This document shows positions 179-22,308 of a DNA stretch of 29,259 bases, piece after piece (position 1 is the stretch's first letter; every line of letters starts with the position of its first letter). The DNA lies in contig NZ_JNWV01000065.1 in NCBI RefSeq assembly GCF_000716535.1, forward strand, positions 1 to 29,259, in the 5' to 3' direction. Source of the DNA: Streptomyces flaveolus. GTDB lineage: Bacteria > Actinomycetota > Actinomycetes > Streptomycetales > Streptomycetaceae. Under the pieces are notes generated by a model. The model worked only from the letters and a program-made list of their open reading frames with translations. It was not told the DNA's origin and did no database searches. Both the position numbers and the translations under genes were made by a program.

Positions 179-1348
179 TCAGGCGGGTTTGTCCAAGATC
201 GCTGCCCCTTTTGACAGTTCCTGGGCACGGATGGCGGTCAGTGCGGCGAGTGCGGCCATGGACAGGGTGATGTGCCGGTACCAGGCGTCGTAACGGCGGA
301 CCTGGTAGTGGTCCAGGCCGCACTCGTTCTTCGCGGCCTGGAAACATTCCTCGACCTGCCACCGAGCCCCGGCCACCCGGGCCAGGTCCCTCAGCCGCGT
401 GCCGACCGGGCCGTAGCACACGTAGTAAGCAATCTCGGTCGGGTTACTGACGCCGCGGCGGGCCAGTACCCAGTGGCCGAAGCCGTTCTCCCACCAGATT
501 CGGATCGGCACCCGGGCCCAGTCGTAGAACCTGTGCCCATGAGCACCGGCTCCTGCCGACACGCGCTTCCATGCCTGCCGCGGCAGGCCGGCCACCAGGG
601 CGTCGACCCGGGCCTCGGCGCCTCGGGTGGTGATGACGGTGTCGTTGACCTTGGTCGCCAGCACATGCGCGACCGCGCGCTGCTCCAGCCAGTACCGCAG
701 CCGCTTGACCTGCCCGTATGCCTCGTCCGCGGTCACCCACGCGAACGGCACCTTCGCGTCCAGTACCCGCTGGAGCATGGCCTGGAAGTGCTCGATCTTC
801 GTGGCGAACGGCACGTCGTCCGGGATGCCGGCCGCCCGGCACCGCTCACGGTCGTCGGTCCAGGACTTCGGCAGATACAACTCCCGGTCGATCAACGCCC
901 GCCCTCGCCGCGAGGCGTAGGCAAGGAAGGTGCCGATCTGGCAGTTCTCGGTGCGGCCGGCCGTTCCGGAGTACTGCCGCTGCACCCCGGCCGAGCGGAC
1001 TCCCTTCTTCAGGAACCCGGTGTCGTCGCCGATCAGCACCGCGTCCTTGTCACCGATGCTCTCGATGACGAAGTCACGGACGTCGTCGCGGACCCCGTCG
1101 GCGTCCCAGTCCGCCTCACCCAGCAGCCGCTGCATCCCAATCGGATGCGCCTCACCAGCGCGTTCTGCCAGCGACCAGCCGTTCTTACGCTCCAGCGGTG
1201 CCACCAGCCCGGCCATGTACTCCAACGCCCGGCCCCGCGGCTCCGAGCGGGCAAACCGCGACGCGAACCGCGCGTGTAACCCGGCCAACGCCTCACGCCA
1301 GGACTCGACTTGACGCACACCAAGATCCACAGACACCGGGACACTCAA
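179..1348 (-). CDS. IS701-family DDE transposase
   Basis: A 389-residue transposase filling most of the element, the usual size for the family. It should cut and rejoin the IS ends through a two-metal DDE active site. Candidate catalytic residues are D108 or D109 in GDDTGFLKKG, D208 in VTADEAYG, and E333 or E334 in WQVEECFQAAK. The last motif, followed by the segment around CGLDHYQVR and the DAWYRH block, is typical of IS701-type actinobacterial transposases. The reading frame is uninterrupted and the ATG at 1348 lies just inside the right repeat. About 170 noncoding bases separate the stop codon from the left end. I infer an active enzyme; only the family assignment and intactness are visible. 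Confidence 0.93.
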   Translation of the reverse strand: MSVPVSVDLGVRQVESWREALAGLHARFASRFARSEPRGRALEYMAGLVAPLERKNGWSLAERAGEAHPIGMQRLLGEADWDADGVRDDVRDFVIESIGDKDAVLIGDDTGFLKKGVRSAGVQRQYSGTAGRTENCQIGTFLAYASRRGRALIDRELYLPKSWTDDRERCRAAGIPDDVPFATKIEHFQAMLQRVLDAKVPFAWVTADEAYGQVKRLRYWLEQRAVAHVLATKVNDTVITTRGAEARVDALVAGLPRQAWKRVSAGAGAHGHRFYDWARVPIRIWWENGFGHWVLARRGVSNPTEIAYYVCYGPVGTRLRDLARVAGARWQVEECFQAAKNECGLDHYQVRRYDAWYRHITLSMAALAALTAIRAQELSKGAAILDKPA

Positions 1349-4917: not shown

Positions 4918-4945
4918 TTGCGAGGCATTCGGGTCAGAGTAGCCT
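4918..4945 (+). promoter_or_regulatory. Candidate promoter of the lasso-like cluster
   Basis: TTGCGA at 4918-4923 and TAGCCT at 4940-4945 are separated by 16 bases, close to a housekeeping-sigma promoter (TTGACA / TANNNT). It lies after the regulator stop and about 38 bases before the precursor ATG, leaving room for the GGAGG ribosome-binding site at 4972-4976. Confidence 0.5.
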
Positions 4946-4982
4946 GGAGTTGATCGACGCCACCCGGTTCTGGAGGTAGGCG

Positions 4983-5099
4983 ATGTTGATCCGATTTCTG
5001 CGGCGCCGTATGCCGCGCGGCCTTGTCCTTCTCGGCGGCGGCCGTCTGATCAGGGGTTTCAGCGGCGGCGACTACGACGGTCACGGGTATCAGTCCTGA
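4983..5099 (+). CDS. Putative lasso-type RiPP precursor peptide
   Basis: A 38-residue ORF with a strong ribosome-binding site (GGAGG, six bases before the ATG). It lies 31 bases before the RRE/protease gene and on the same strand as the cyclase, the position expected for a lasso precursor. The N-terminal half is arginine-rich (MLIRFLRRRMPRG). P11, L14 and G18 recall the Pro-Leu-Gly leader pattern that lasso RREs recognise, with Pro and Leu one residue further apart than usual. There is no Tyr before the Pro and no Thr at the usual penultimate leader position. If cleavage falls after R24, the core is GFSGGDYDGHGYQS, where Gly1 could form an isopeptide with Asp8, leaving a six-residue tail. Anantin, a known lasso peptide, also starts Gly-Phe and closes at Asp8. 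Other cuts (before F26 for a 7-ring, before R24 for a 9-ring) are possible. Confidence is high for the ORF and moderate for the exact core. Confidence 0.75.
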   Translation: MLIRFLRRRMPRGLVLLGGGRLIRGFSGGDYDGHGYQS

Positions 5100-5130
5100 C
5101 ACCCTGCACCGGGGCATGGGAGGTCGTGCG

Positions 5131-5745
5131 GTGACACAGGACCCCGACGCCCTGGTGGCCATGACACGGATCCTCTCACCACACTGCCGCGTCACCAGGC
5201 TTCCCGGAGGGGCGCTCATCGCCGACTGGAAGCGGACGCGCTTTCTCGGGATGGCGGCGGCGGACGTCGAGAAGTTCGCCGACGAAAGCTCAGAGGAACG
5301 CGCGGAACTCGTCACCGGTCTCGTCCGAGCCGGATGCTCGGCGGGTCGTCGGCGGTCGGACACGGACGCCGAGGTGGGACTCTGGCTGCGCAGTGGGCAC
5401 CTGTTGATCCGGACGCTCGGCTTCGGACGGGTCCTTCGGCTCCTGCCCTTGGCCGCCCCTCAGTACGCCCGAACGGACACCCCTTCCGCCGCGGACGTCG
5501 CACGGCTGAAACGAGCGGTTCAAGCGGTCGGCCGGAGAAGCTGGTTGGTCAACGGCGACTGCAAGACCGAGGCCGTCACTGCCTTCGTCCTGCTACGGCG
5601 GCGCGGCTTCAAGGCGGTACTGCATGTGGGTGTGCGCGAGCACCCGTTCGCCATGCACGCCTGGACGTCTGCGGCCGGCCTGTGCATCCCGGACGCCGAT
5701 CCGCGAGGCCATGCCTTCACCCCGGTCCTCTCGATCGGCTGTTGA
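5131..5745 (+). CDS. Fused RRE and lasso-type leader peptidase (B1-B2 fusion)
   Basis: A 204-residue protein. Residues about 6-70 look like a PqqD-fold RiPP recognition element (VTRLPGGALIADWKRTRFLG, then a helical EERAELVTGLVRAG segment). Residues about 120-204 match the transglutaminase-like cysteine protease of lasso pathways: C144 in NGDCKTEA, H176 in FAMHAW, and D188 in CIPDAD form the expected triad. LLRRRGFKAVLHVGVREHPF is the typical intervening block. It should bind the precursor leader and cut it off, working with the cyclase. I preferred the GTG at 5131, preceded by GGGAGG at seven bases, over the ATG at 5116 with a poor ribosome-binding site. Actinobacteria usually encode these two domains as separate genes, so the fusion is notable. 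The cyclase starts ten bases after its stop. Confidence 0.88.
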   Translation: MTQDPDALVAMTRILSPHCRVTRLPGGALIADWKRTRFLGMAAADVEKFADESSEERAELVTGLVRAGCSAGRRRSDTDAEVGLWLRSGHLLIRTLGFGRVLRLLPLAAPQYARTDTPSAADVARLKRAVQAVGRRSWLVNGDCKTEAVTAFVLLRRRGFKAVLHVGVREHPFAMHAWTSAAGLCIPDADPRGHAFTPVLSIGC

Positions 5746-5755
5746 GGGCGTCGGC

Positions 5756-7570
5756 ATGGAAGCGCTCCGAGTCGAGTTCGACGGGAACGTGCCCGAACTC
5801 CTGACGGCCGGGGGCATGGTCCGGCAGGGACTCGTGACGACGGTTTCGTCGCCAGTCGGCACAGCGGTGGTCGTCGGCTGGGTCGGTTCCGTCCACGACC
5901 GCCTGGCGGGCACACGTGCTCTCCTCACCGCCTTCGCCCGGTCTGGAACCCAACCTCCGCTGCCCACCGGCGACTTCGCGGCCGTCCTGGTGTACCAGGA
6001 CCGCGTCCTGCTGATGCGGGACGAGCAGGCGCGCATCCCGTTGTTCTTCAGGGAGTCCGACGGCCGGGTGAGCGCGGTGAGTACCTCGGCGCGCAGCCTG
6101 GGCAGCGCCACCGAGCTGGAACCCGGCTACTTCTGCCGGTATCTGACCGGGAACATGGCACAACCGCACACGGAACCGACCCCGTTCGCCGGGGTGCACC
6201 GGATCCTCGGCGGCGAGGTGGTGGAGCTCTCCGTCAGCGGGCGGATGCGTGGCCGGCGGCTGAGCCGGACCGGGCGCACCGACGATTCGCCGGCACCGCC
6301 GGCAGACGGATCCGGTCCCGGGCAACGGCTTCGCCACGCTCTGGAGCACGCTGTCGGGCGCCGCCTCGGCCGGACGATCGCCTGCCATGTCTCCGGCGGC
6401 ACCGACTCCACCAGCGTCGCGTTGCTCACGGCCCGTCTGCTCGCCGCGGGGCAGGAGGGCAGTACCGGGGACCTGATCCTGCTCGCCGGGCGCTACGGCG
6501 GGGGAGAGCTGGCCGCGGAACGGCCGTACCTGGAGGAGGCGGTGGAGGCGGTCCGTGAACAGGCGCCCGGCGCCCGCCCGGTGATCGTCGACGCCGACGA
6601 CGTGGCAGACTTCGACGACTTCCTGCACCACGCCGGGGACTCGGACGAGCCGCACGCCCACGCCTTCCGTGCCCCCTTCTGGAGCAGGCTGCACACCGTC
6701 GCGGCCGAGCTGGGCTGCGACACCCTCCTGACCGGATGCGGAGCCGATCCGGTCGTGGACGCCAACCCGTTTCATCTGCACCGGCTGGCCCGTTCCGGAC
6801 GGCTCCGGGAGATGACGAGTCAGGCCCGGGCCCGGGCCACGGCGGGCGAACAGGGAGTGCGCGACATCGTCCGCACCCACGTCCTCCGGCCGACGTTGCC
6901 ACTGACAGCCGAACGGATCAACAGGCTCGTCCACCGAGGAACCATCCTCGGGGGCCTCGGCCACTTCACCCGCCCGCCATGGCTGAGACGCGGATTCGCA
7001 CGGGCTCACGGCTACCGCGCGGCCTGCCTCACGGAGAGCCGGTTCCTGTTCGGGCGCGAGCCGGAACGGTCGCTCTACGACGCGGCGAACTATCTCGCCG
7101 CGCCCGACCCGCTGTCCTGGCGCTGCGCACCGCAGCACGGATTCTTCCTCTCGCACCCCTTCCTCGACCCGGAGGTCATCGCCACGATGCGCAGCCTCCC
7201 CGCCGAAGCCACGTTCCGCCCGGGCTCTCCGAAGACGGTTCTGCGTGAGGCTATGGCGGACATGCTCCCGCCCCGGATACGCGACCGGACGGACAAGGTC
7301 CCCTTCAACGAGCCCTACGTCCATGGTCTGCGGTCACACGGCGATGACCTCATCGACCTGTGCCGCTCCGCACGGCATCCGCTCATCGCGGAGATGTTGA
7401 ACGTCGAGACACTCTGCCGGGCGGTACGGGAGGCTCAGCTCGGCACGGGGGATTCCGCCTCCTGGGACCGTATGAACGGCTCGCTCGCCCTGGTGGTGTG
7501 GCTCGAGGGACTGCTGGACGAGCGTCCGGGTGTGCCCGGTGCGGCTGTGCCGGTCAGTGTTGGTTCTTGA
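5756..7570 (+). CDS. Asparagine-synthetase-like lasso peptide cyclase
   Basis: A 604-residue protein that should adenylate an Asp or Glu side chain of the core peptide and close an isopeptide bond to its N-terminal amine. The N-terminal third resembles the glutaminase-like domain of class B asparagine synthetases but starts MEALRV, without the catalytic Cys2. The C-terminal domain has the ATP pyrophosphatase loop SGGTDST at 213-219, and later LLTGCGADPVVDANPFHLH and SPKTVLREAMADMLPP, as in lasso macrolactam synthetases. The ATG at 5756 has GAGGG upstream and follows the protease stop by ten bases, so the genes are one operon. Its last 17 bases overlap the 3' end of a convergent gene. No ABC transporter follows. 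Beta-lactam-synthetase-type use is an alternative, but the RRE and protease neighbours favour the lasso role. Confidence 0.9.
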   Translation: MEALRVEFDGNVPELLTAGGMVRQGLVTTVSSPVGTAVVVGWVGSVHDRLAGTRALLTAFARSGTQPPLPTGDFAAVLVYQDRVLLMRDEQARIPLFFRESDGRVSAVSTSARSLGSATELEPGYFCRYLTGNMAQPHTEPTPFAGVHRILGGEVVELSVSGRMRGRRLSRTGRTDDSPAPPADGSGPGQRLRHALEHAVGRRLGRTIACHVSGGTDSTSVALLTARLLAAGQEGSTGDLILLAGRYGGGELAAERPYLEEAVEAVREQAPGARPVIVDADDVADFDDFLHHAGDSDEPHAHAFRAPFWSRLHTVAAELGCDTLLTGCGADPVVDANPFHLHRLARSGRLREMTSQARARATAGEQGVRDIVRTHVLRPTLPLTAERINRLVHRGTILGGLGHFTRPPWLRRGFARAHGYRAACLTESRFLFGREPERSLYDAANYLAAPDPLSWRCAPQHGFFLSHPFLDPEVIATMRSLPAEATFRPGSPKTVLREAMADMLPPRIRDRTDKVPFNEPYVHGLRSHGDDLIDLCRSARHPLIAEMLNVETLCRAVREAQLGTGDSASWDRMNGSLALVVWLEGLLDERPGVPGAAVPVSVGS

Positions 7571-8843
7571 TGTCCCACAGGGGCCGCTCGACAGGGCCCG
7601 TTTCCACCAGGCGGACGCCGTACCGGCCTTCCACCGATTCCTGGGACTCGTCCTTGCCGTTTTCCGTGCTGATGGTTTCCAGAATATTGACGCCGTGAGC
7701 CCCGAACCGCCAGTAGACGGTCATGTACCGGGGCTCCCTGGTCCTTTCGTCAATCACGTTGTTCTCATGAATCCGGCTTTTGTAGACGATGGAGTCAAAA
7801 TCTTTCTTATTCAACCACTGGGGTACCTGGGCGCCACGCCAGCTGTACCCGTCGATGTGCAGGTTCTCCAGGCGAGCGCGGTCCTTGCGAGTGAGGTGCG
7901 CGCTGGCATAGAACGCCAGCTGATCGTACTGGGTGTCCACGGGAAGTTGCACGACTACTCGGGAGGAGAACGTATCGCTGGCGTAGACCCACCGCCCCCA
8001 GGGCATCCAGGGCTGCGCCGACACCAACTCGCCGGGCTGGTGCATCTCCCTTCGGGAGACCGGGTTGACTTCCTGGAAGTTCGCCCATTGTTCGGAATCG
8101 GATCGCCATTGTTGACGGAGCCGGTCGTGTGAGCTGAGCGGCACCCGTTCCGCCATGGCGTGAAATTCGGTGCCCAGAACGTAGAAGGCCGCCTCACTTC
8201 GGTTCTCGATCGTGATGTCCACCGGCAGGGAAAAGGCCTTGCGATCCGGATTCGTCATCGGCTTTCCCACGGTCAACCGGATGACGGGCCTGACTTCGCG
8301 TTGGGACGGCTGGTACAGGTTCTGGTAGCCGAAATTCGCCACCGCGATGACCGTGGTGACGACCAGTGTCGCGGCCACCCGTTTCGGAGCGGGAATCACG
8401 ACCGATGTGCGGCACACCGCGAGGACAGCCCATGCCGAGCCTGCCGTGAGGGCGCTGAACAGCGCCTTGAACAGCGCGGAATCGCCGTCCTTCAGAATCT
8501 CGGCCAGGATGAGGAGGTTGCTCAGCGCGGCCGCGAAGGCGCCGATCAGCGCCACCAGCCCGGAGTAGTCGAACCTGTGCGACAGCCAGTGGTCCGCGGC
8601 CGCGAAAGCGCCCAGCAGCGTGGTGAAGGCCACCGCGATGAGCACGGCACCGGTGATACGGCCGGCGAAGGTCAGCGCCCCGACGAAGTCCGCAATGCCG
8701 AACCAGCCCAACAGCCCGGTCGTCGCGAGGAGAACCAGCAGGATCAACGTCAGCGAGACCCTCGACGGTCTGGCTTTCGCCTTCGCCAGCGTCCGTTGCG
8801 CCCTCTGCCGCGAGCTGGCGGGCGAGTTGCCGTACATTCTCAC
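7554..8843 (-). CDS. Membrane protein with five predicted helices, unknown function
   Basis: A 429-residue protein I do not recognise. The N-terminal 175 residues hold about five hydrophobic segments (roughly 29-47, 60-82, 94-115, 127-143 and 156-173). The remaining 250 residues are soluble, with beta-rich stretches such as SLPVDITIENRSEAAFYVLG and VVVQLPVDTQYDQLAFY, possibly an Ig-like or jelly-roll domain outside the membrane. The first residues are basic (RQRAQRTLAKAKARPSR), consistent with a cytoplasmic N-terminus. The GTG at 8843 overlaps the stop of a 20-residue ORF as GTGA, which suggests translational coupling; an ATG at 8837 is an alternative start. Its 3' end overlaps the lasso cyclase gene convergently by 17 bases. 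A link to the peptide cluster is unproven. Confidence 0.75.
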   Translation of the reverse strand: MRMYGNSPASSRQRAQRTLAKAKARPSRVSLTLILLVLLATTGLLGWFGIADFVGALTFAGRITGAVLIAVAFTTLLGAFAAADHWLSHRFDYSGLVALIGAFAAALSNLLILAEILKDGDSALFKALFSALTAGSAWAVLAVCRTSVVIPAPKRVAATLVVTTVIAVANFGYQNLYQPSQREVRPVIRLTVGKPMTNPDRKAFSLPVDITIENRSEAAFYVLGTEFHAMAERVPLSSHDRLRQQWRSDSEQWANFQEVNPVSRREMHQPGELVSAQPWMPWGRWVYASDTFSSRVVVQLPVDTQYDQLAFYASAHLTRKDRARLENLHIDGYSWRGAQVPQWLNKKDFDSIVYKSRIHENNVIDERTREPRYMTVYWRFGAHGVNILETISTENGKDESQESVEGRYGVRLVETGPVERPLWDIKNQH

Positions 8844-8902
8844 CAGACCACCGCCGGTAAGATTCCCCCGGTTCCGAACCGGCCTGTGTCAACGCTTTCC
8901 AC
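8840..8902 (-). CDS. Candidate 20-residue coupled micro-ORF
   Basis: The GTG at 8902 is preceded by GGAGG at six bases, a strong ribosome-binding site. The peptide reads VESVDTGRFGTGGILPAVVW. Its TGA stop overlaps the GTG of the membrane-protein gene as GTGA, and its own start lies inside the end of the upstream 34-residue ORF. The arrangement suggests a chain of coupled translation or a leader peptide that sets expression of the membrane protein. There is no family to compare with, and chance occurrence cannot be excluded. Confidence 0.4.
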   Translation of the reverse strand: MESVDTGRFGTGGILPAVVW

Positions 8903-8993
8903 GCGGTGCCTCCTTCACAGACCCGCAGCGAACCACCAGATCTGCCACCAGGGACGCGTACTCATCCTCCGTGGTGATCGATCCGCTCGCCAT
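8889..8993 (-). CDS. Candidate 34-residue ORF upstream of the membrane protein
   Basis: The ATG at 8993 has GGAGG seven bases upstream. The acidic-then-basic peptide contains ITTEDEYASLVADLVVRCGS and ends APRGKR. It overlaps the 20-residue ORF by 14 bases. The middle could form one amphipathic helix, and the sequence looks like the start of a larger actinobacterial protein that was cut short. I do not recognise a family. The two good ribosome-binding sites in succession are the main reason for listing it. Confidence 0.4.
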   Translation of the reverse strand: MASGSITTEDEYASLVADLVVRCGSVKEAPRGKR

Positions 8994-9070
8994 CCGCGTG
9001 CCTCCGGATGGGGAGCCGCGACCAGGCGGCCCTGTCGTGTACGGCAAGGCAGTGCGGGCCCGCTCGCCGG

Positions 9071-10324
9071 TCAGAGTCGGACGACGATCAGCGCGATGTC
9101 GTCGCGGCCGCCGCTCGAGACGCCGAGGCGTGCCAGGACGGTGTCGGCGAGTTGTTCGGTCCCCAGGCGGCCGCATTCGCTGAGCACGTCGGTCAGGCGT
9201 CCGAGCCCGGCGTAGATGTCCTCGCCGCGGCGCTCGATCAGTCCGTCGGTGTACAGGACGAGGGTGTCGCCGGGTCTGTAGGGCAGGCTGGCCTGTGGGC
9301 GGGGGACGTGCTGGGGGCGGGCGCCGAGAGGTGGGTCGGTGGCCTGGTCGAGCAGTTCGCAGTCGCCGTCGGGGTGGAGGAGTAACGGCGGCGGGTGGCC
9401 GGCGTTGCTGTAGGTGATCAGGCGGCTGCGGGTGTCGGCGAGTGTCTGGACGGCGGTGGTGCCCAGGGCGTCCTCGATGGACCGGGCGTACAGGCCGAGG
9501 ACCTCCAGAGCCTGGGCAGGGCGTTCCAGGGCCCGGGTGGCCGCGGACAGGGCACTGCGGAGCATGCCCATGACCGCTGCGGCCTGGAGGCCGTGGCCGA
9601 TGACATCGCCGACAGCGAGGGCGAGCCGGTCGGGTGGGATGTCGACGACGTCGTACCAGTCGCCGCACACATTCAGGGAGCCGGTGGCGGGCAGGTAGCG
9701 CACCGTCACATCGTGTGGGTGCTGAGCCAGGTCAGGGGCGTGCAGCATGGCTTCCTGCAGGGCGAGGGCGACCTCCCGTTCGCGCGTGTGGGCCTGGCGC
9801 AGTTCCTCGTTCAGCCGCTGCAACTCCCGCGCCCGTGCGTACAATTCGGCCTCCAGCGCCTCGGTTTCCTCCAGGTACTGGCCCACCCGGACATCGGCGG
9901 GCCGCGCGGCGCGGTGGGCTTTGACGAACGCGGTGACGTCCTCGACCCGGTGGATGATGTAGGCCACCTGCCCGTCCGGGCCCAGGACGGGAGTGTTCAC
10001 CGGGGACCACCACCGTTCCTCGAAGACGCCTGGCCGGCCCATGACGGGGATGTCGTACTTCTGCAGGCCCATCGTGTCGGGCCGGCTGGTGGCCAGGACC
10101 CGGTGCAGGGAAGCGCCGAGGTTGCGGACCCCGTCGGCATCCGGGTCGGCGGGATTGTCGGGGAACGCGGTGAAGATGTGCAGGCCGAGCAGGTCCTCGC
10201 GGGTGCGTTCGGTGGCCTCCAGATAGGCCTGGTTCACATCGACGATGACCAGGTCCGGGCCGAGTACCAGGTACGGGCTCGGTGTGGCGGCGAACAGTGC
10301 CGCGTGATCAACCCGCGATGCCAT
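9071..10324 (-). CDS. PAS domain SpoIIE-type PP2C phosphatase
   Basis: A 417-residue serine/threonine phosphatase of the SpoIIE/RsbU class, which typically dephosphorylates anti-anti-sigma factors in partner-switching circuits. Order of parts: a PAS sensor (about 5-125, including SPYLVLGPDLVIVDVNQAYL and VAYIIHRVEDVT), a helical linker (about 140-185, ELYARARELQRLNEELRQ), then the phosphatase domain. Metal-site motifs are GDWYD, AVGDVIGHG, LYTDGLIERR and the closing SGGRDDIALIVV. No histidine-kinase-like ATPase domain is attached, unlike many Streptomyces relatives. The ATG at 10324 was chosen because GGAAGGGAG ends eight bases upstream; a GTG at 10333 would sit against it. It is transcribed divergently from the carbonic anhydrase. 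The sensed signal and target are unknown. Confidence 0.92.
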   Translation of the reverse strand: MASRVDHAALFAATPSPYLVLGPDLVIVDVNQAYLEATERTREDLLGLHIFTAFPDNPADPDADGVRNLGASLHRVLATSRPDTMGLQKYDIPVMGRPGVFEERWWSPVNTPVLGPDGQVAYIIHRVEDVTAFVKAHRAARPADVRVGQYLEETEALEAELYARARELQRLNEELRQAHTREREVALALQEAMLHAPDLAQHPHDVTVRYLPATGSLNVCGDWYDVVDIPPDRLALAVGDVIGHGLQAAAVMGMLRSALSAATRALERPAQALEVLGLYARSIEDALGTTAVQTLADTRSRLITYSNAGHPPPLLLHPDGDCELLDQATDPPLGARPQHVPRPQASLPYRPGDTLVLYTDGLIERRGEDIYAGLGRLTDVLSECGRLGTEQLADTVLARLGVSSGGRDDIALIVVRL

Positions 10325-12081: not shown

Positions 12082-12593
12082 GAAGCCGGCCGACAGACGA
12101 TCACGAGTCGGCGTACTCAGGAAAGCTAGGTACGTGTCCCCACGTCCCCGGTTCCACACCGCGTGCTCGCTCGGCCCGGCCCCGGCCGAACGCCGTGCCG
12201 TTCACCGACCCGTCAGGCTTCGAAGCGTCGCCGGGCGGCCCGCAGTCTGCGGCTCTGGACGTCCCTGAGTAACTGGTCGAGACGAAGCCACCGCGGTCCT
12301 GGACTGAGCGTGACGAGCGCCGCGTCCACCCCTGGCGGCACGTCACGCCGCACTCCGCCACCGCGGGGCGAGCCGGGCCCGTCGGCGTGAGCGCCGGACG
12401 GGACGACTGGCGCTCCGCGGCCCGGAACAAGCGCGCGCCCGCCGTGCCGTGCGCGCCGCGCCGGCTCCGGAACACGCGCGCGTTTCGTGCAGTGCGGCGC
12501 GCGCATTGTGCAGGACGACGCGCCGCCCTCCTCCGCACACTCGGTGCTCCAAGCGATCGACGCACACCGGATGGCACGCGGAGGCAGAACTCA
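12082..12593. other. Control region upstream of the aromatic catabolic operon
   Basis: About 510 bases with no supported gene, although GC-driven frames stay open. It lies between a divergent gene and the operon start and should hold the operon promoter. The 3' part is very GC-rich with many GCGCG runs; a spaced direct repeat near 12487-12513 is listed separately. The ribosome-binding site GGAGG precedes the operon start by nine bases. Confidence 0.55.
12487..12513 (+). repeat. GTGCAG direct repeat with 21-bp period, possible operator
   Basis: GTGCAG occurs at 12487-12492 and again at 12508-12513, exactly two helical turns apart on the same face of DNA and about 80 bases before the operon start. 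AraC-family regulators commonly bind direct repeats with this period, and an AraC-type gene ends the operon region. The motif is short, so chance is possible. Confidence 0.35.
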
Positions 12594-14522
<1,929 letters not shown>

Positions 14523-14539: not shown

Positions 14540-16312
14540 ATGACGACCACCGACCCGCTCGACGCGTACGACACCGACGTCCTCGTCGTCGGCAGCGGCC
14601 CCGCGGGCGGCTCCGCCGCCCTCCTGCTGGCCACCTACGGCATCCGCACCCTGCTGGTGACGAAGTACGGGTGGCTCGCCAACACCCCGCGCGCGCACAT
14701 CACCAACCAGCGCACCATGGAGGTCCTGCGCGACCTCGGCGTCGAGTCGGAGGCGCTGGCCCTCGGCAGCCCCTCCCACCTGATGGGGGACACCGTGCTG
14801 TGCACGGCGCTCACGGGCGACGAGATCGGCCGCATCCGCAGCTGGGGCACAGGCCCCGCGACGGCCACCGAGTACTCCGCCAAGAGCCCCTGCGAGATGA
14901 TCGACCTGCCGCAGACCTATCTGGAGCCGATCCTGGTCGACAACGCGGCGGCCCGCGGTGCCAAGGTCCGCTTCGACACCGAGTTCCTCAGCTTCGAACA
15001 GGACGAGGCCGGGGTCACCGCCCGCCTGCGCGACCGGGTCCGAGGTGACGAGTTCACGGTGCGGGCCCGCTACCTGATCGGCGCCGACGGCGGGCGCAGC
15101 GCCGTCGCCGAGCAGCTCGGCCTGCCCTTCGCCGGCCGCATGGCCAAGGCCGGCAGCATGAACATCGTCTTCAAGGCCGACCTGACCCGGTACTGCGCCC
15201 ACCGTCCGAGCGTCCTGTACTGGGTGCTGCAGCCCGGCGCGGACACCGGGGGCATCGGCATGGGCCTCGTCCGCATGGTCCGCCCGTGGAACGAGTGGCT
15301 GCTGGTGTGGGGTTACGACATAGAGCAGCCGCCGCCGAGTGTCGACGAGGAGGCCGCCCGGAAGATCGTGCGCGACCTCATCGGCGATCCCGACCTCCCG
15401 GTGGAGATCACGTCGACCTCGCTGTGGACCGTCAACCACGCCTACGCCGAGGAGTATTCGTCCGGCAGGGTCTTCTGCGCCGGCGACGCCGTGCACCGTC
15501 ATCCGCCGTCCAACGGACTGGGCTCCAACACCTCCGTCCAGGACGCGTACAACCTCGCCTGGAAACTCGCGATGGTGATCCGCGGCGAGGCGGGGCCCGC
15601 GCTGCTCGACAGCTACACGGCCGAACGCGCCCCGGTGGGGCGGCAGATCGTCGAGCGGGCCAACCTCAGCCGTGACCAGTTCGGGCCGATCTTCGACGTA
15701 CTCGGCGTCGGCGGCGGCAGCGACGCGGAGGCCATCGCCGAAGGGATCGCGGCGATACGGGAGCGGACACCCGAGGGCGCCAAGAAGAGACGCCGGCTCG
15801 AAGAGGCGATCCAGCTGAAGAACTACGAGTTCAACGCGCACGGCGTGGAGATGAACCAGCGGTACGTCTCCACCGCGGTGCTCCCCGACGACAGCCCGGC
15901 CGAAGTGTGGGCGGGCGACCGCGAGTTGGTGCACCAGCCGACGACCCGTCCGGGCGCCAAGCTGCCGCACGCCTGGCTGGTCGACGCACAGGGCGAGCGC
16001 GTGTCCACGCTGGACGTCGTCGGCCACGGCGTCTTCACCGTGCTGACCGGTCTGTCCGGCGGTGTCTGGGAGACCGCCGCGCGCACCTGCGGCGACGCCC
16101 TCGGCGTACCGCTGCGCGTCGTGCGCGTCGGTGACGACGACTGCCGTGACGCCTACGGCGAATGGAGCCGCGTCAGCGAGATCGCCGAGGACGGTGTGCT
16201 GCTGGTGCGCCCGGACGGACACGTCGCCTGGCGCCGGGCCACCGCCGCGGAGACCGACGAGGCGGCGCGGGAGGAACTCCTCGGCGCGCTCCGCCACGTC
16301 CTGGCGCGTTAG
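14540..16312 (+). CDS. FAD-dependent phenol/resorcinol-type monooxygenase
   Basis: A 590-residue flavoprotein hydroxylase of the PheA/TfdB class, expected to hydroxylate a phenolic ring with NAD(P)H and oxygen. Motifs: [16 protein letters not shown] (FAD ADP-binding GxGxxG, about residues 14-29), [17 protein letters not shown] (DG motif), and [20 protein letters not shown] (GD motif). The C-terminal 180 residues form the thioredoxin-like domain usual for this class. Given the downstream dioxygenase, resorcinol to hydroxyquinol is the likely reaction, but a chlorophenol, salicylate derivative or other phenol cannot be excluded. I chose the ATG at 14540 behind GAGGAG; an earlier ATG at 14519 overlaps the previous stop as ATGA. 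Both fit an operon. Confidence 0.9.
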
Positions 16313-16322
16313 GGAGGACGCG

Positions 16323-16769
16323 ATGGACAAGCTCGTGGCCACGGCCGGTGAGGCCCTGGCGGACGTGACCGACGGACAGTCGTTCGCCGTGGGAGGCCTC
16401 GGACTGAGCGGTGTCCCGGAGGTCCTCATCGACGCCCTGTACGCGACCGGGGCGGGACCCGGCCTCGCGGTCGCGTCGAACAACTGCGGGGTCGACGGCC
16501 GGGGTCTCGGCGTCCTCCTGGCGGCGGGCCGCATCGGCCGGGTCACGGGCTCGTACATCGGTGACAACAAGGAGTTCGCCCGTCAGTACCTCGCCGGTGA
16601 ACTGGAGGTCGAACTCACCCCGCAGGGCACCCTCGCCGAGCGGCTGCGGGCGGGAGGCAGCGGCATCCCCGCCTTCTACACCCCGGCCGGAGTCGGCACG
16701 CAGGTCGCCGAGGGCGGGCTGCCGGTGCGATGGACCTCGTCCACGGGGTCCGCCGGGTCGTCGTACTGA
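16323..16769 (+). pseudogene. 3-oxoadipate CoA-transferase subunit A, truncated by deletion
   Basis: The first about 137 residues match the alpha subunit of 3-oxoacid CoA-transferases (PcaI type): [17 protein letters not shown] (the CoA-binding glycine motif), [48 protein letters not shown] and [18 protein letters not shown]. Homology stops abruptly near 16729; the last dozen codons read beta-subunit sequence in the wrong frame before a stop. Roughly 90-100 C-terminal residues normally present are missing. The start has GGAGG five bases upstream and follows the hydroxylase by ten bases, so it is still translated within the operon. The product should not form an active transferase. Confidence 0.88.
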
Positions 16770-21705: not shown

Positions 21706-22308
21706 TCAGGCGTCCCAGGCACGAGGGCGGCTCAGCTCTTCCCACTCAGGGCGGAGCAGCGAGAACACGGCGAGGTCATGGCGGCGGCCGCGGTGGAGGC
21801 AGGCGGCGCGACTGATCCCTTCCTGGGTGAAGCCGGACTTGGCGAGGACGGCGCGCGCTGGGGCGTTGTCGGTGTGGGTTCTCGCCGTGAGCCGATACAT
21901 CGGGAGCTCACCGAAGGCCAGGTCCACCACGGCGTCGAGGGCGGCGGTGCCGTGGCCGTGCCCGCGATGCTGTGCAGCGAGCATCAGCTCGATCTCGGCA
22001 GTGCCGTCGACAACGTTCTGGCTGGTCAGTGCAACGTAGCCGACAGGGGTGCCGCCGGGGAGGAGGACGAGGAAGTCGTCGCGATCGTCATCCTCGATGT
22101 CGCGCTCGATGCGCTCGCGTACGGCGGTGAGTGAGCGTGGCCAGATACCTATTTGGTGGGCGGCTACAGGGTCGGATCGCCAGCGGTGCATCAGCTCGGC
22201 GTCGTCAATGTCGAGTGCTGCGAGGCCGAGGGACTTGGCCCGCCAGGAAAGCTCCCTCTCGGCCTCCGCGTCCTGCTCGTCGCCGGCGATCCTGATCTCT
22301 TCATTCAT
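21706..22308 (-). CDS. GNAT-family N-acetyltransferase
   Basis: A 200-residue protein of the RimJ/RimL-like GNAT class, transferring an acetyl group from acetyl-CoA to an amine. The fold is visible as LTSQNVVDGTAEIELMLAAQ (strand 4), the acetyl-CoA loop QHRGHGHGTAALDAVVDLAF, then YRLTARTHTDNAPARAVLAK with the typical asparagine, and SGFTQEGISRAACLHRGRRH. The ending DLAVFSLLRPEWEEL is typical too. The N-terminal 25 residues are acidic and variable. The ATG at 22308 has no ribosome-binding site but a leaderless-type TAGCAT six bases upstream. The acceptor could be a ribosomal protein, antibiotic or metabolite; it cannot be told. Confidence 0.9.
   Translation of the reverse strand: MNEEIRIAGDEQDAEAERELSWRAKSLGLAALDIDDAELMHRWRSDPVAAHQIGIWPRSLTAVRERIERDIEDDDRDDFLVLLPGGTPVGYVALTSQNVVDGTAEIELMLAAQHRGHGHGTAALDAVVDLAFGELPMYRLTARTHTDNAPARAVLAKSGFTQEGISRAACLHRGRRHDLAVFSLLRPEWEELSRPRAWDA

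What the first reader, a model, noticed from the sequence alone, without database searches (positions are those of the whole stretch)
4918..7570. Compact lasso-peptide-like cluster with an unusual precursor
Seen: a promoter-like pair, a 38-residue ORF with an excellent ribosome-binding site, a fused RRE/cysteine protease with an intact Cys-His-Asp triad, and an asparagine-synthetase-like cyclase with SGGTDST, all tightly spaced. Known: these are the core parts of lasso peptide biosynthesis. Unusual: the leader is arginine-rich and lacks the customary Tyr and penultimate Thr, and the predicted core GFSGGDYDGHGYQS would have an 8-residue ring (Gly1-Asp8) but only a six-residue tail without large plug residues other than one Tyr. 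No transporter is present. Inference: either a divergent short lasso peptide or a branched-cyclic peptide that does not thread.
Basis: partly seen in the sequence, partly recalled or inferred. Interest (0 to 1): 0.85.

Follow-up and report, generated by a model that had tools for sequence, protein, structure and literature searches.

The report
Conserved short lasso-type peptide cluster
A small Streptomyces gene cluster encodes an almost unchanging 14-residue peptide, two enzymes that should turn it into a ring with a tail, and a membrane protein of unknown family that was found in every cluster-bearing genome searched for it, which suggests the peptide and the membrane protein work as a pair.

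Summary
The precursor is a real, conserved gene, found upstream of the protease in 17 of 17 cluster genomes of a 392-genome sample and in 38 of 38 loci. Gly1, Ser3, Gly4, Asp8, Gly9, His10 and Gly11 never vary in 35 distinct precursors; the window's Asp6 does, so Asp8 is the likely ring acceptor. Its full-length close form occurs in 17 of 17 cluster genomes and 0 of 375 others (one has a fragment), and in 29 of 29 distinct cluster genomes overall, even where unlinked. One genome also holds a peptide-plus-partner pair without enzymes beside it. The cyclase is a separate lineage (100/100 support), below curated lasso cut-offs. Best reading: a lasso-type peptide with a dedicated surface partner. 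Threading, product and partner role are inferred; no coevolution of peptide and partner was detected. Motif searches of open papers found nothing.

The parts
4918..4945 (+). promoter: -35 TTGCGA (4918-4923), 16-bp spacer, -10 TAGCCT (4940-4945)
   Evidence: TTGC is seen by eye in 38 of 38 homologous upstream stretches, with TAGCCT or a near variant downstream of it
4972..4976 (+). ribosome-binding site GGAGG
   Evidence: sequence; the like recurs before the ATG in the homologous loci printed
4983..5099 (+). precursor peptide gene, 38 codons plus stop; leader 4983-5054 (24 aa), predicted core 5055-5096 (GFSGGDYDGHGYQS)
5131..5745 (+). lasso-type leader protease (B), 204 aa from GTG; residues 1-68 RRE-like (inferred), residues 87-201 B2 protease domain
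   Evidence: NF033537 over cut-off, PF13471, alignment A2, model, structural comparison
5756..7570 (+). asparagine-synthetase-like macrolactam cyclase (C), 604 aa
   Evidence: PF00733; NF033561 162 bits, below its cut-off of 300; tree
7554..8843 (-). partner membrane protein (M), 429 aa: helices to about residue 177, then a beta-sandwich domain 178-429; convergent, overlaps the cyclase end by 17 bp
   Evidence: conserved next door in 32 of 35 loci with enough flank; co-occurrence; model mean pLDDT 82; overlap

Best explanation
This is a four-gene lasso-type RiPP unit. Steps: (1) a housekeeping-type promoter drives precursor, protease and cyclase as one transcript (inferred from spacing and conservation). 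(2) The N-terminal domain of the protease binds the conserved leader (Arg-rich, Pro at -14, LVLLGNGRLIR) and the Cys-His-Asp protease cuts after Arg(-1), freeing Gly1 (inferred; about 0.8). (3) The cyclase adenylates Asp8 and joins it to the Gly1 amine, giving an eight-residue ring and a six-residue tail (about 0.8). (4) The tail probably threads, with His10 and Tyr12 on either side of Gly11 as locks (about 0.55). (5) The product acts at the outer domain of the partner membrane protein, which is its dedicated receptor, target or immunity protein (about 0.6 for direct action in one of these roles). Shown here: gene content, conservation and co-occurrence. Inferred: every chemical step and the partner's role.
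For: Protease over the curated lasso B2 cut-off. Precursor in 38 of 38 loci and 17 of 17 genus genomes. Gly1 and Asp8 invariant in 35 of 35 distinct precursors; Asp6 in only 7 of 35, which singles out Asp8; position 12 is Tyr 33, Phe 1, His 1. Pro(-14) 34 of 35; Ile(-2) 34 of 35, Val in the other, with an experimental precedent for Ile(-2). Partner: full-length close form (47 to 64 percent identity to the window's) in 17 of 17 cluster genomes and in none of 375 others (Fisher p 4e-30, uncorrected for relatedness); 29 of 29 distinct cluster genomes when searches are joined; the gene is unlinked from the cluster in 4 of these 29 (G016, G566, G567=G605, G601) yet present. S. echinatus (G016) carries a second precursor beside a partner gene with no protease or cyclase next to it. 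The positive N terminus of the window's partner fits an outward beta domain.
Against: No product has been seen. The cyclase is below both curated cut-offs and sits on a stem of 2.43 changes per column. The RRE domain is not secured. A mirror-tree test found no precursor-partner coevolution beyond protease and cyclase (partial correlation 0.01, Mantel p 0.47, 31 loci), so that test does not support direct peptide-partner contact. Close partner genes lie without a precursor-like ORF in the stretch held in L133, L134, L139, L145, L189 and L190 (L139 and L189 are the same gene; four of the six stretches reach only 1.5 kb either side). One genome without the cluster, G032, has a partner fragment (58 percent over 74 residues; 54 percent over 93).
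Confidence: 0.62

Rival explanations
1. The enzymes make the Gly1-Asp8 ring but the six-residue, Gly-rich tail never threads: a branched-cyclic peptide.
For: Core of 14 residues with a six-residue tail, near the low end of the 13-33 range; Tyr12 is the only large tail residue besides His10 in the window core; divergent cyclase.
Against: Positions 9 to 11 are invariant and position 12 is Tyr, Phe or His in 35 of 35, a bulky-Gly-bulky pattern that suits a threaded Gly11; short threaded lassos with small rings are reported (huascopeptin, xanthomonins; details recalled, only a reference title and a figure legend seen).
Confidence: 0.35
2. The partner is the exporter of the peptide and stands in for the missing ABC transporter.
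For: No ABC transporter among the window ORFs scanned; the partner was present in all 29 distinct cluster genomes searched.
Against: No ATPase or curated transporter family: no Pfam match in the window protein; 5 of 61 homologues match PHO4 weakly, best E 0.0009. More than half of the protein is a beta-sandwich domain.
Confidence: 0.2
3. The peptide is an antibiotic and the partner is only its immunity protein.
For: Linked gene, faster divergence than the enzymes (mean distance 0.40 against 0.25 to 0.26), patchy distribution (17 of 392).
Against: Immunity-only strains, usual for bacteriocins (recalled), were not seen: 0 of 375 genomes with a full-length close partner, one with a fragment. The core hardly changes across species.
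Confidence: 0.3
4. The cut is elsewhere, or the ring uses another residue, for example Asp6 in the window peptide.
For: The leader lacks Tyr(-17) and Thr(-2); hydrophobic and Gly residues before Arg(-1) are also conserved.
Against: Asp8 is the only invariant acidic residue and precursor residue Gly25 is invariant; a seven- or nine-residue ring closing on Asp8 would start at Phe or Arg.
Confidence: 0.1

Closest known systems
Ordinary lasso-type clusters of the same genus (seven loci looked at: L155, L158, L160, L162, L165, L168, L171)
   Same: Asparagine-synthetase-like cyclase, and a short Cys-His protease by eye in five of the seven.
   Different: There the cyclase is followed by a separate protease (L158, L162, L165, L168, L171) and in some by a separate B1 of about 84 residues. 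Here the order is precursor, single-chain protease with an extra N-terminal domain, cyclase; another cyclase lineage; no Tyr(-17)/Thr(-2); a dedicated membrane partner.
Albusnodin/ikarugamycin family macrolactam cyclases (NF033561)
   Same: Best curated match of the cyclase, 162 bits over residues 14-585.
   Different: Below the cut-off of 300 and on another branch than the six over-cut-off rows; no Lys in any of the 35 cores, so no Lys acetylation as in albusnodin (passages).
Bradymonas BsfA lasso precursor with Ile(-2)
   Same: Penultimate Ile, Gly1-Asp8 ring predicted, Pro(-14) (PMC10368454).
   Different: BsfA keeps YxxPxL and has a kinase and separate B1 and B2 proteins; sequences were not compared here.
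Microcin J25-type (McjB) single-chain leader proteases
   Same: Gene order A-B-C and, if the RRE is real, one chain carrying recognition domain and protease (family knowledge; cluster layout).
   Different: That cluster has an ABC transporter (McjD); here none was found beside it.

Membership tests
lasso peptide (RiPP class) | B2-type leader protease | tested here: met
   NF033537 78.5 bits against 33
lasso peptide (RiPP class) | lasso macrolactam cyclase | tested here: inconclusive
   Asn_synthase family PF00733; curated lasso cyclase NF033535 88 bits against 525 and NF033561 162 against 300; separate clade
lasso peptide (RiPP class) | precursor with leader and a core with Gly1 and an acidic residue at 7 to 9 | tested here: met
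   Gly1 and Asp8 in 35 of 35 distinct precursors; the cut site itself is inferred
lasso peptide (RiPP class) | usual leader motif Tyr(-17), Pro(-14), Leu(-12), Thr(-2) | tested here: not met
   Only Pro(-14) kept (34 of 35); -17 is Arg in 31 of 35, -12 is Arg or Gly in 34 of 35, -2 is Ile in 34 of 35. Thr(-2) has a known natural exception, so the motif is usual rather than strictly defining
lasso peptide (RiPP class) | RRE (PqqD-like) domain | tested here: inconclusive
lasso peptide (RiPP class) | tail threaded through the ring | not testable with these tools
   needs the isolated peptide
albusnodin/ikarugamycin family cyclase NF033561 | curated score cut-off | tested here: not met
   162.4 against 300 bits
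albusnodin/triculamin-type lasso peptides | Lys in the core acetylated by a clustered acetyltransferase | tested here: not met
   no Lys at any core position in 35 distinct precursors; the only acetyltransferase among the window ORFs scanned lies about 13 kb away at 21706-22308
lasso clusters with ABC transporter | linked ABC transporter | tested here: not met
   none among the window ORFs scanned; in other loci only the partner recurs at a fixed place, though their single neighbours were not annotated. A common, not a defining, feature

The most novel reading that the evidence does not exclude
The 14-residue macrolactam is a dedicated ligand or cofactor of a new family of outward-facing membrane proteins, a peptide-receptor pair in which neither part is kept intact without the other in Streptomyces. 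It would be a lasso-type peptide used as an endogenous signal or protein effector rather than as an antibiotic, and one enzyme set could serve a second, enzyme-free peptide-partner pair elsewhere in the genome.
Probability: 0.3. Interest if true: 0.85.

Novelty: new variant of a known kind. Interest (0 to 1): 0.62.

Why it matters
Lasso peptides are mostly studied as weapons with variable cores. Here is a lineage, seen in 17 of 392 sampled genomes of the genus, whose product hardly changes and whose presence is tied to one membrane protein of no curated family. If the pairing is functional it offers a direct test of whether lasso-type peptides serve their own producers, and it gives a very short ring-and-tail scaffold plus an unexplored cyclase lineage. 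In the one annotated record examined (a plasmid) the precursor is not in the gene table (which is incomplete by its makers' account) and cyclase and partner are called asparagine synthase-related and hypothetical, so precursor genes of this kind may be overlooked.

Full report
Anatomy. The window is the whole contig C65 of a 10.3-Mb genome; the nearest listed cyclase is 98 percent identical, from Streptomyces flaveolus. From 4918: a TTGCGA/TAGCCT promoter with a 16-bp spacer, a GGAGG ribosome site, a 38-codon ORF (4983-5099), a GTG-started protease gene (5131-5745), a cyclase gene (5756-7570) and, on the other strand and overlapping the cyclase end by 17 bp, a 429-codon gene (7554-8843). The protease passes the curated lasso B2 cut-off (78.5 against 33 bits); the cyclase has the asparagine synthase domain but scores below the curated cut-offs of both macrolactam cyclase models. 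The convergent gene has no Pfam or NCBIfam match.

Conservation. In a genus sample of 392 genomes, 17 carry the cyclase at E 1e-60 or better (68 to 76 percent identity apart from the window itself) and the same 17 the protease at 1e-20 or better (68 to 79 percent). All 17 carry the precursor upstream (16, the last, with His at position 12). A scan of named genomes gave 34 loci: 32 labelled Streptomyces, one Actinobacteria bacterium, one Peterkaempfera. With the window and three loci, all 38 have the precursor; these come from 36 genomes. It is 38 residues in 37 loci and 39 in L059, whose genome also shows an in-frame TGA in the cyclase (G658, matched by coordinates); L069 holds two copies. In a family sample, 3 of 200 genomes (3 of 17 genera, the window's own genome included) have the protease; in an order sample, 14 of 293 genomes, all of the window's genus, have the cyclase. 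The samples overlap.

The peptide. Among 35 distinct precursor DNAs (L059 left out for its extra residue; duplicates collapsed), pN/pS is 0.45 in the leader and 0.35 in the core. Invariant: the start Met, Arg4, Gly18, Arg24 (-1), Gly1, Ser3, Gly4, Asp8, Gly9, His10, Gly11. Pro(-14) is kept in 34 of 35 and Ile(-2) in 34 of 35. Position 6, Asp in the window and six others, is Phe, Leu, Met, His, Tyr or Ser elsewhere, so it is not a general ring acceptor. A natural Ile(-2) was validated for BsfA (PMC10368454; outline with abstract and passages seen). The same source places Tyr, Pro and Leu at -17, -14 and -12; only Pro matches here.

The partner. A comparison of neighbours showed one flanking gene conserved at a fixed place, the convergent membrane protein; other recurring ORFs overlap it or lie scattered and were not annotated. 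A direct search finds it beside the cluster in 32 of 35 loci with enough flank; L053, L073 and L077 lack it there, but each of those genomes has it elsewhere. In the 392-genome sample its full-length close form (47 to 64 percent identity to the window protein) occurs in exactly the 17 cluster genomes; 48 other genomes have only relatives at 24 to 33 percent, one of them (G032) also a close fragment (58 percent over 74 residues), and 327 have none at E 1e-5. add 12 distinct cluster genomes, all with it: 29 of 29 in all, linked in 25 and unlinked in 4. Genomes were taken as the same where coordinates were identical (G016=G568, G422=G570, G567=G605, G569=G658). One search scored at most four candidates per genome, so a missed copy is possible.

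A two-gene pair. G129 has an extra partner beside a fragment of a cyclase, and G281 an extra partner without cluster genes beside it. These cases show that the peptide-partner pair can lie apart from the enzyme genes, in a genome that still has them.

Partner structure. The model (mean pLDDT 82) has a helical membrane part to about residue 177 and a beta-sandwich domain 178-429. The N terminus carries seven Lys/Arg and no Asp/Glu in the window protein, 3.8 Lys/Arg on average in 48 aligned rows, which fits N-in, C-domain-out for five spans; this is inference. Fold matches are to common sandwiches and carry no function. The partner diverges faster than the enzymes (mean distance 0.40 against 0.25 to 0.26) and shows no coevolution with the precursor beyond that of the enzymes; the precursor does keep a partial correlation with the cyclase given the protease (0.38, untested).

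How it probably works. The precursor is bound through its leader, cut after Arg(-1) and closed between Gly1 and Asp8. His10-Gly11-Tyr12, nearly invariant, could straddle the ring plane if the tail threads. The product then meets the partner's outer domain. Because no cluster genome lacked the partner and no full-length close partner was found without the cluster, I favour a dedicated pair (receptor, target or immunity) over an unrelated neighbour. The absence of immunity-only genomes in the sample argues mildly against a plain antibiotic; the G032 fragment shows that partner remnants can remain after or without the cluster. None of this is shown biochemically.

Known or new. It works like a lasso pathway and shares the protease family; whether it is a lasso peptide depends on threading, which cannot be tested here. 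It differs from the compared lasso-type loci of the genus in gene order, cyclase lineage, leader and partner. Where a source names them, the listed cyclases are mostly asparagine synthase-related proteins and the partners mostly hypothetical proteins (120 listed of 246 and of 256); in the one plasmid record read the precursor is not in the gene table (precursor seen). antiSMASH-type scans may already flag such loci: the S. lydicus 103 paper lists a lassopeptide cluster without a known relative (PMC5357945, passage), but I did not check that it is this family. No paper in the held library contains the core or motif strings searched.

Noticed in passing
window 12387-14522, +: One ORF joins an iron-containing alcohol dehydrogenase (maleylacetate-reductase-like by recall) and an intradiol dioxygenase (N and C domains), a possible natural fusion of two steps of hydroxyquinol breakdown; it stands next to an FAD aromatic hydroxylase, a CoA transferase and a thiolase.
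   Followed up: partly
window 16287-16769, +: The CoA-transferase match covers only profile positions 2-130 of 217; the ORF looks short or broken.
   Followed up: no
window 179-1348, -: DDE transposase near the contig start, about 3.6 kb before the precursor.
   Followed up: no
window 21706-22308, -: GNAT acetyltransferase about 13 kb from the cluster; probably unrelated to it.
   Followed up: no
L132 (G016:C6), 9924-10040 minus and 8675-9850 plus: Precursor and partner gene without protease or cyclase beside them.
   Followed up: yes
L085 and L087 (G464 C1, 104 kb and 10.04 Mb): Two equally scoring copies of the cluster near both ends of a chromosome, probably terminal inverted repeats.
   Followed up: partly
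L178 (NZ_CP106796.1): The cluster lies on a 114-kb linear Streptomyces plasmid; its precursor is absent from the gene table.
   Followed up: partly
L069, 4786 and 5193: Two precursor genes with the same peptide.
   Followed up: no
G607:C1:72972-74777 and G658:C61:81823-83625: Cyclase matches with one in-frame TGA each: possible decaying copies.
   Followed up: no
L084, 7768-8999: The partner gene matches in two separate pieces, perhaps interrupted.
   Followed up: no
L134 (G129:C279): Cyclase fragments next to an extra partner gene.
   Followed up: partly
L137 (G032:C53), 8498-8776 minus: Fragment of a close partner gene in a genome where the cluster was not found.
   Followed up: no
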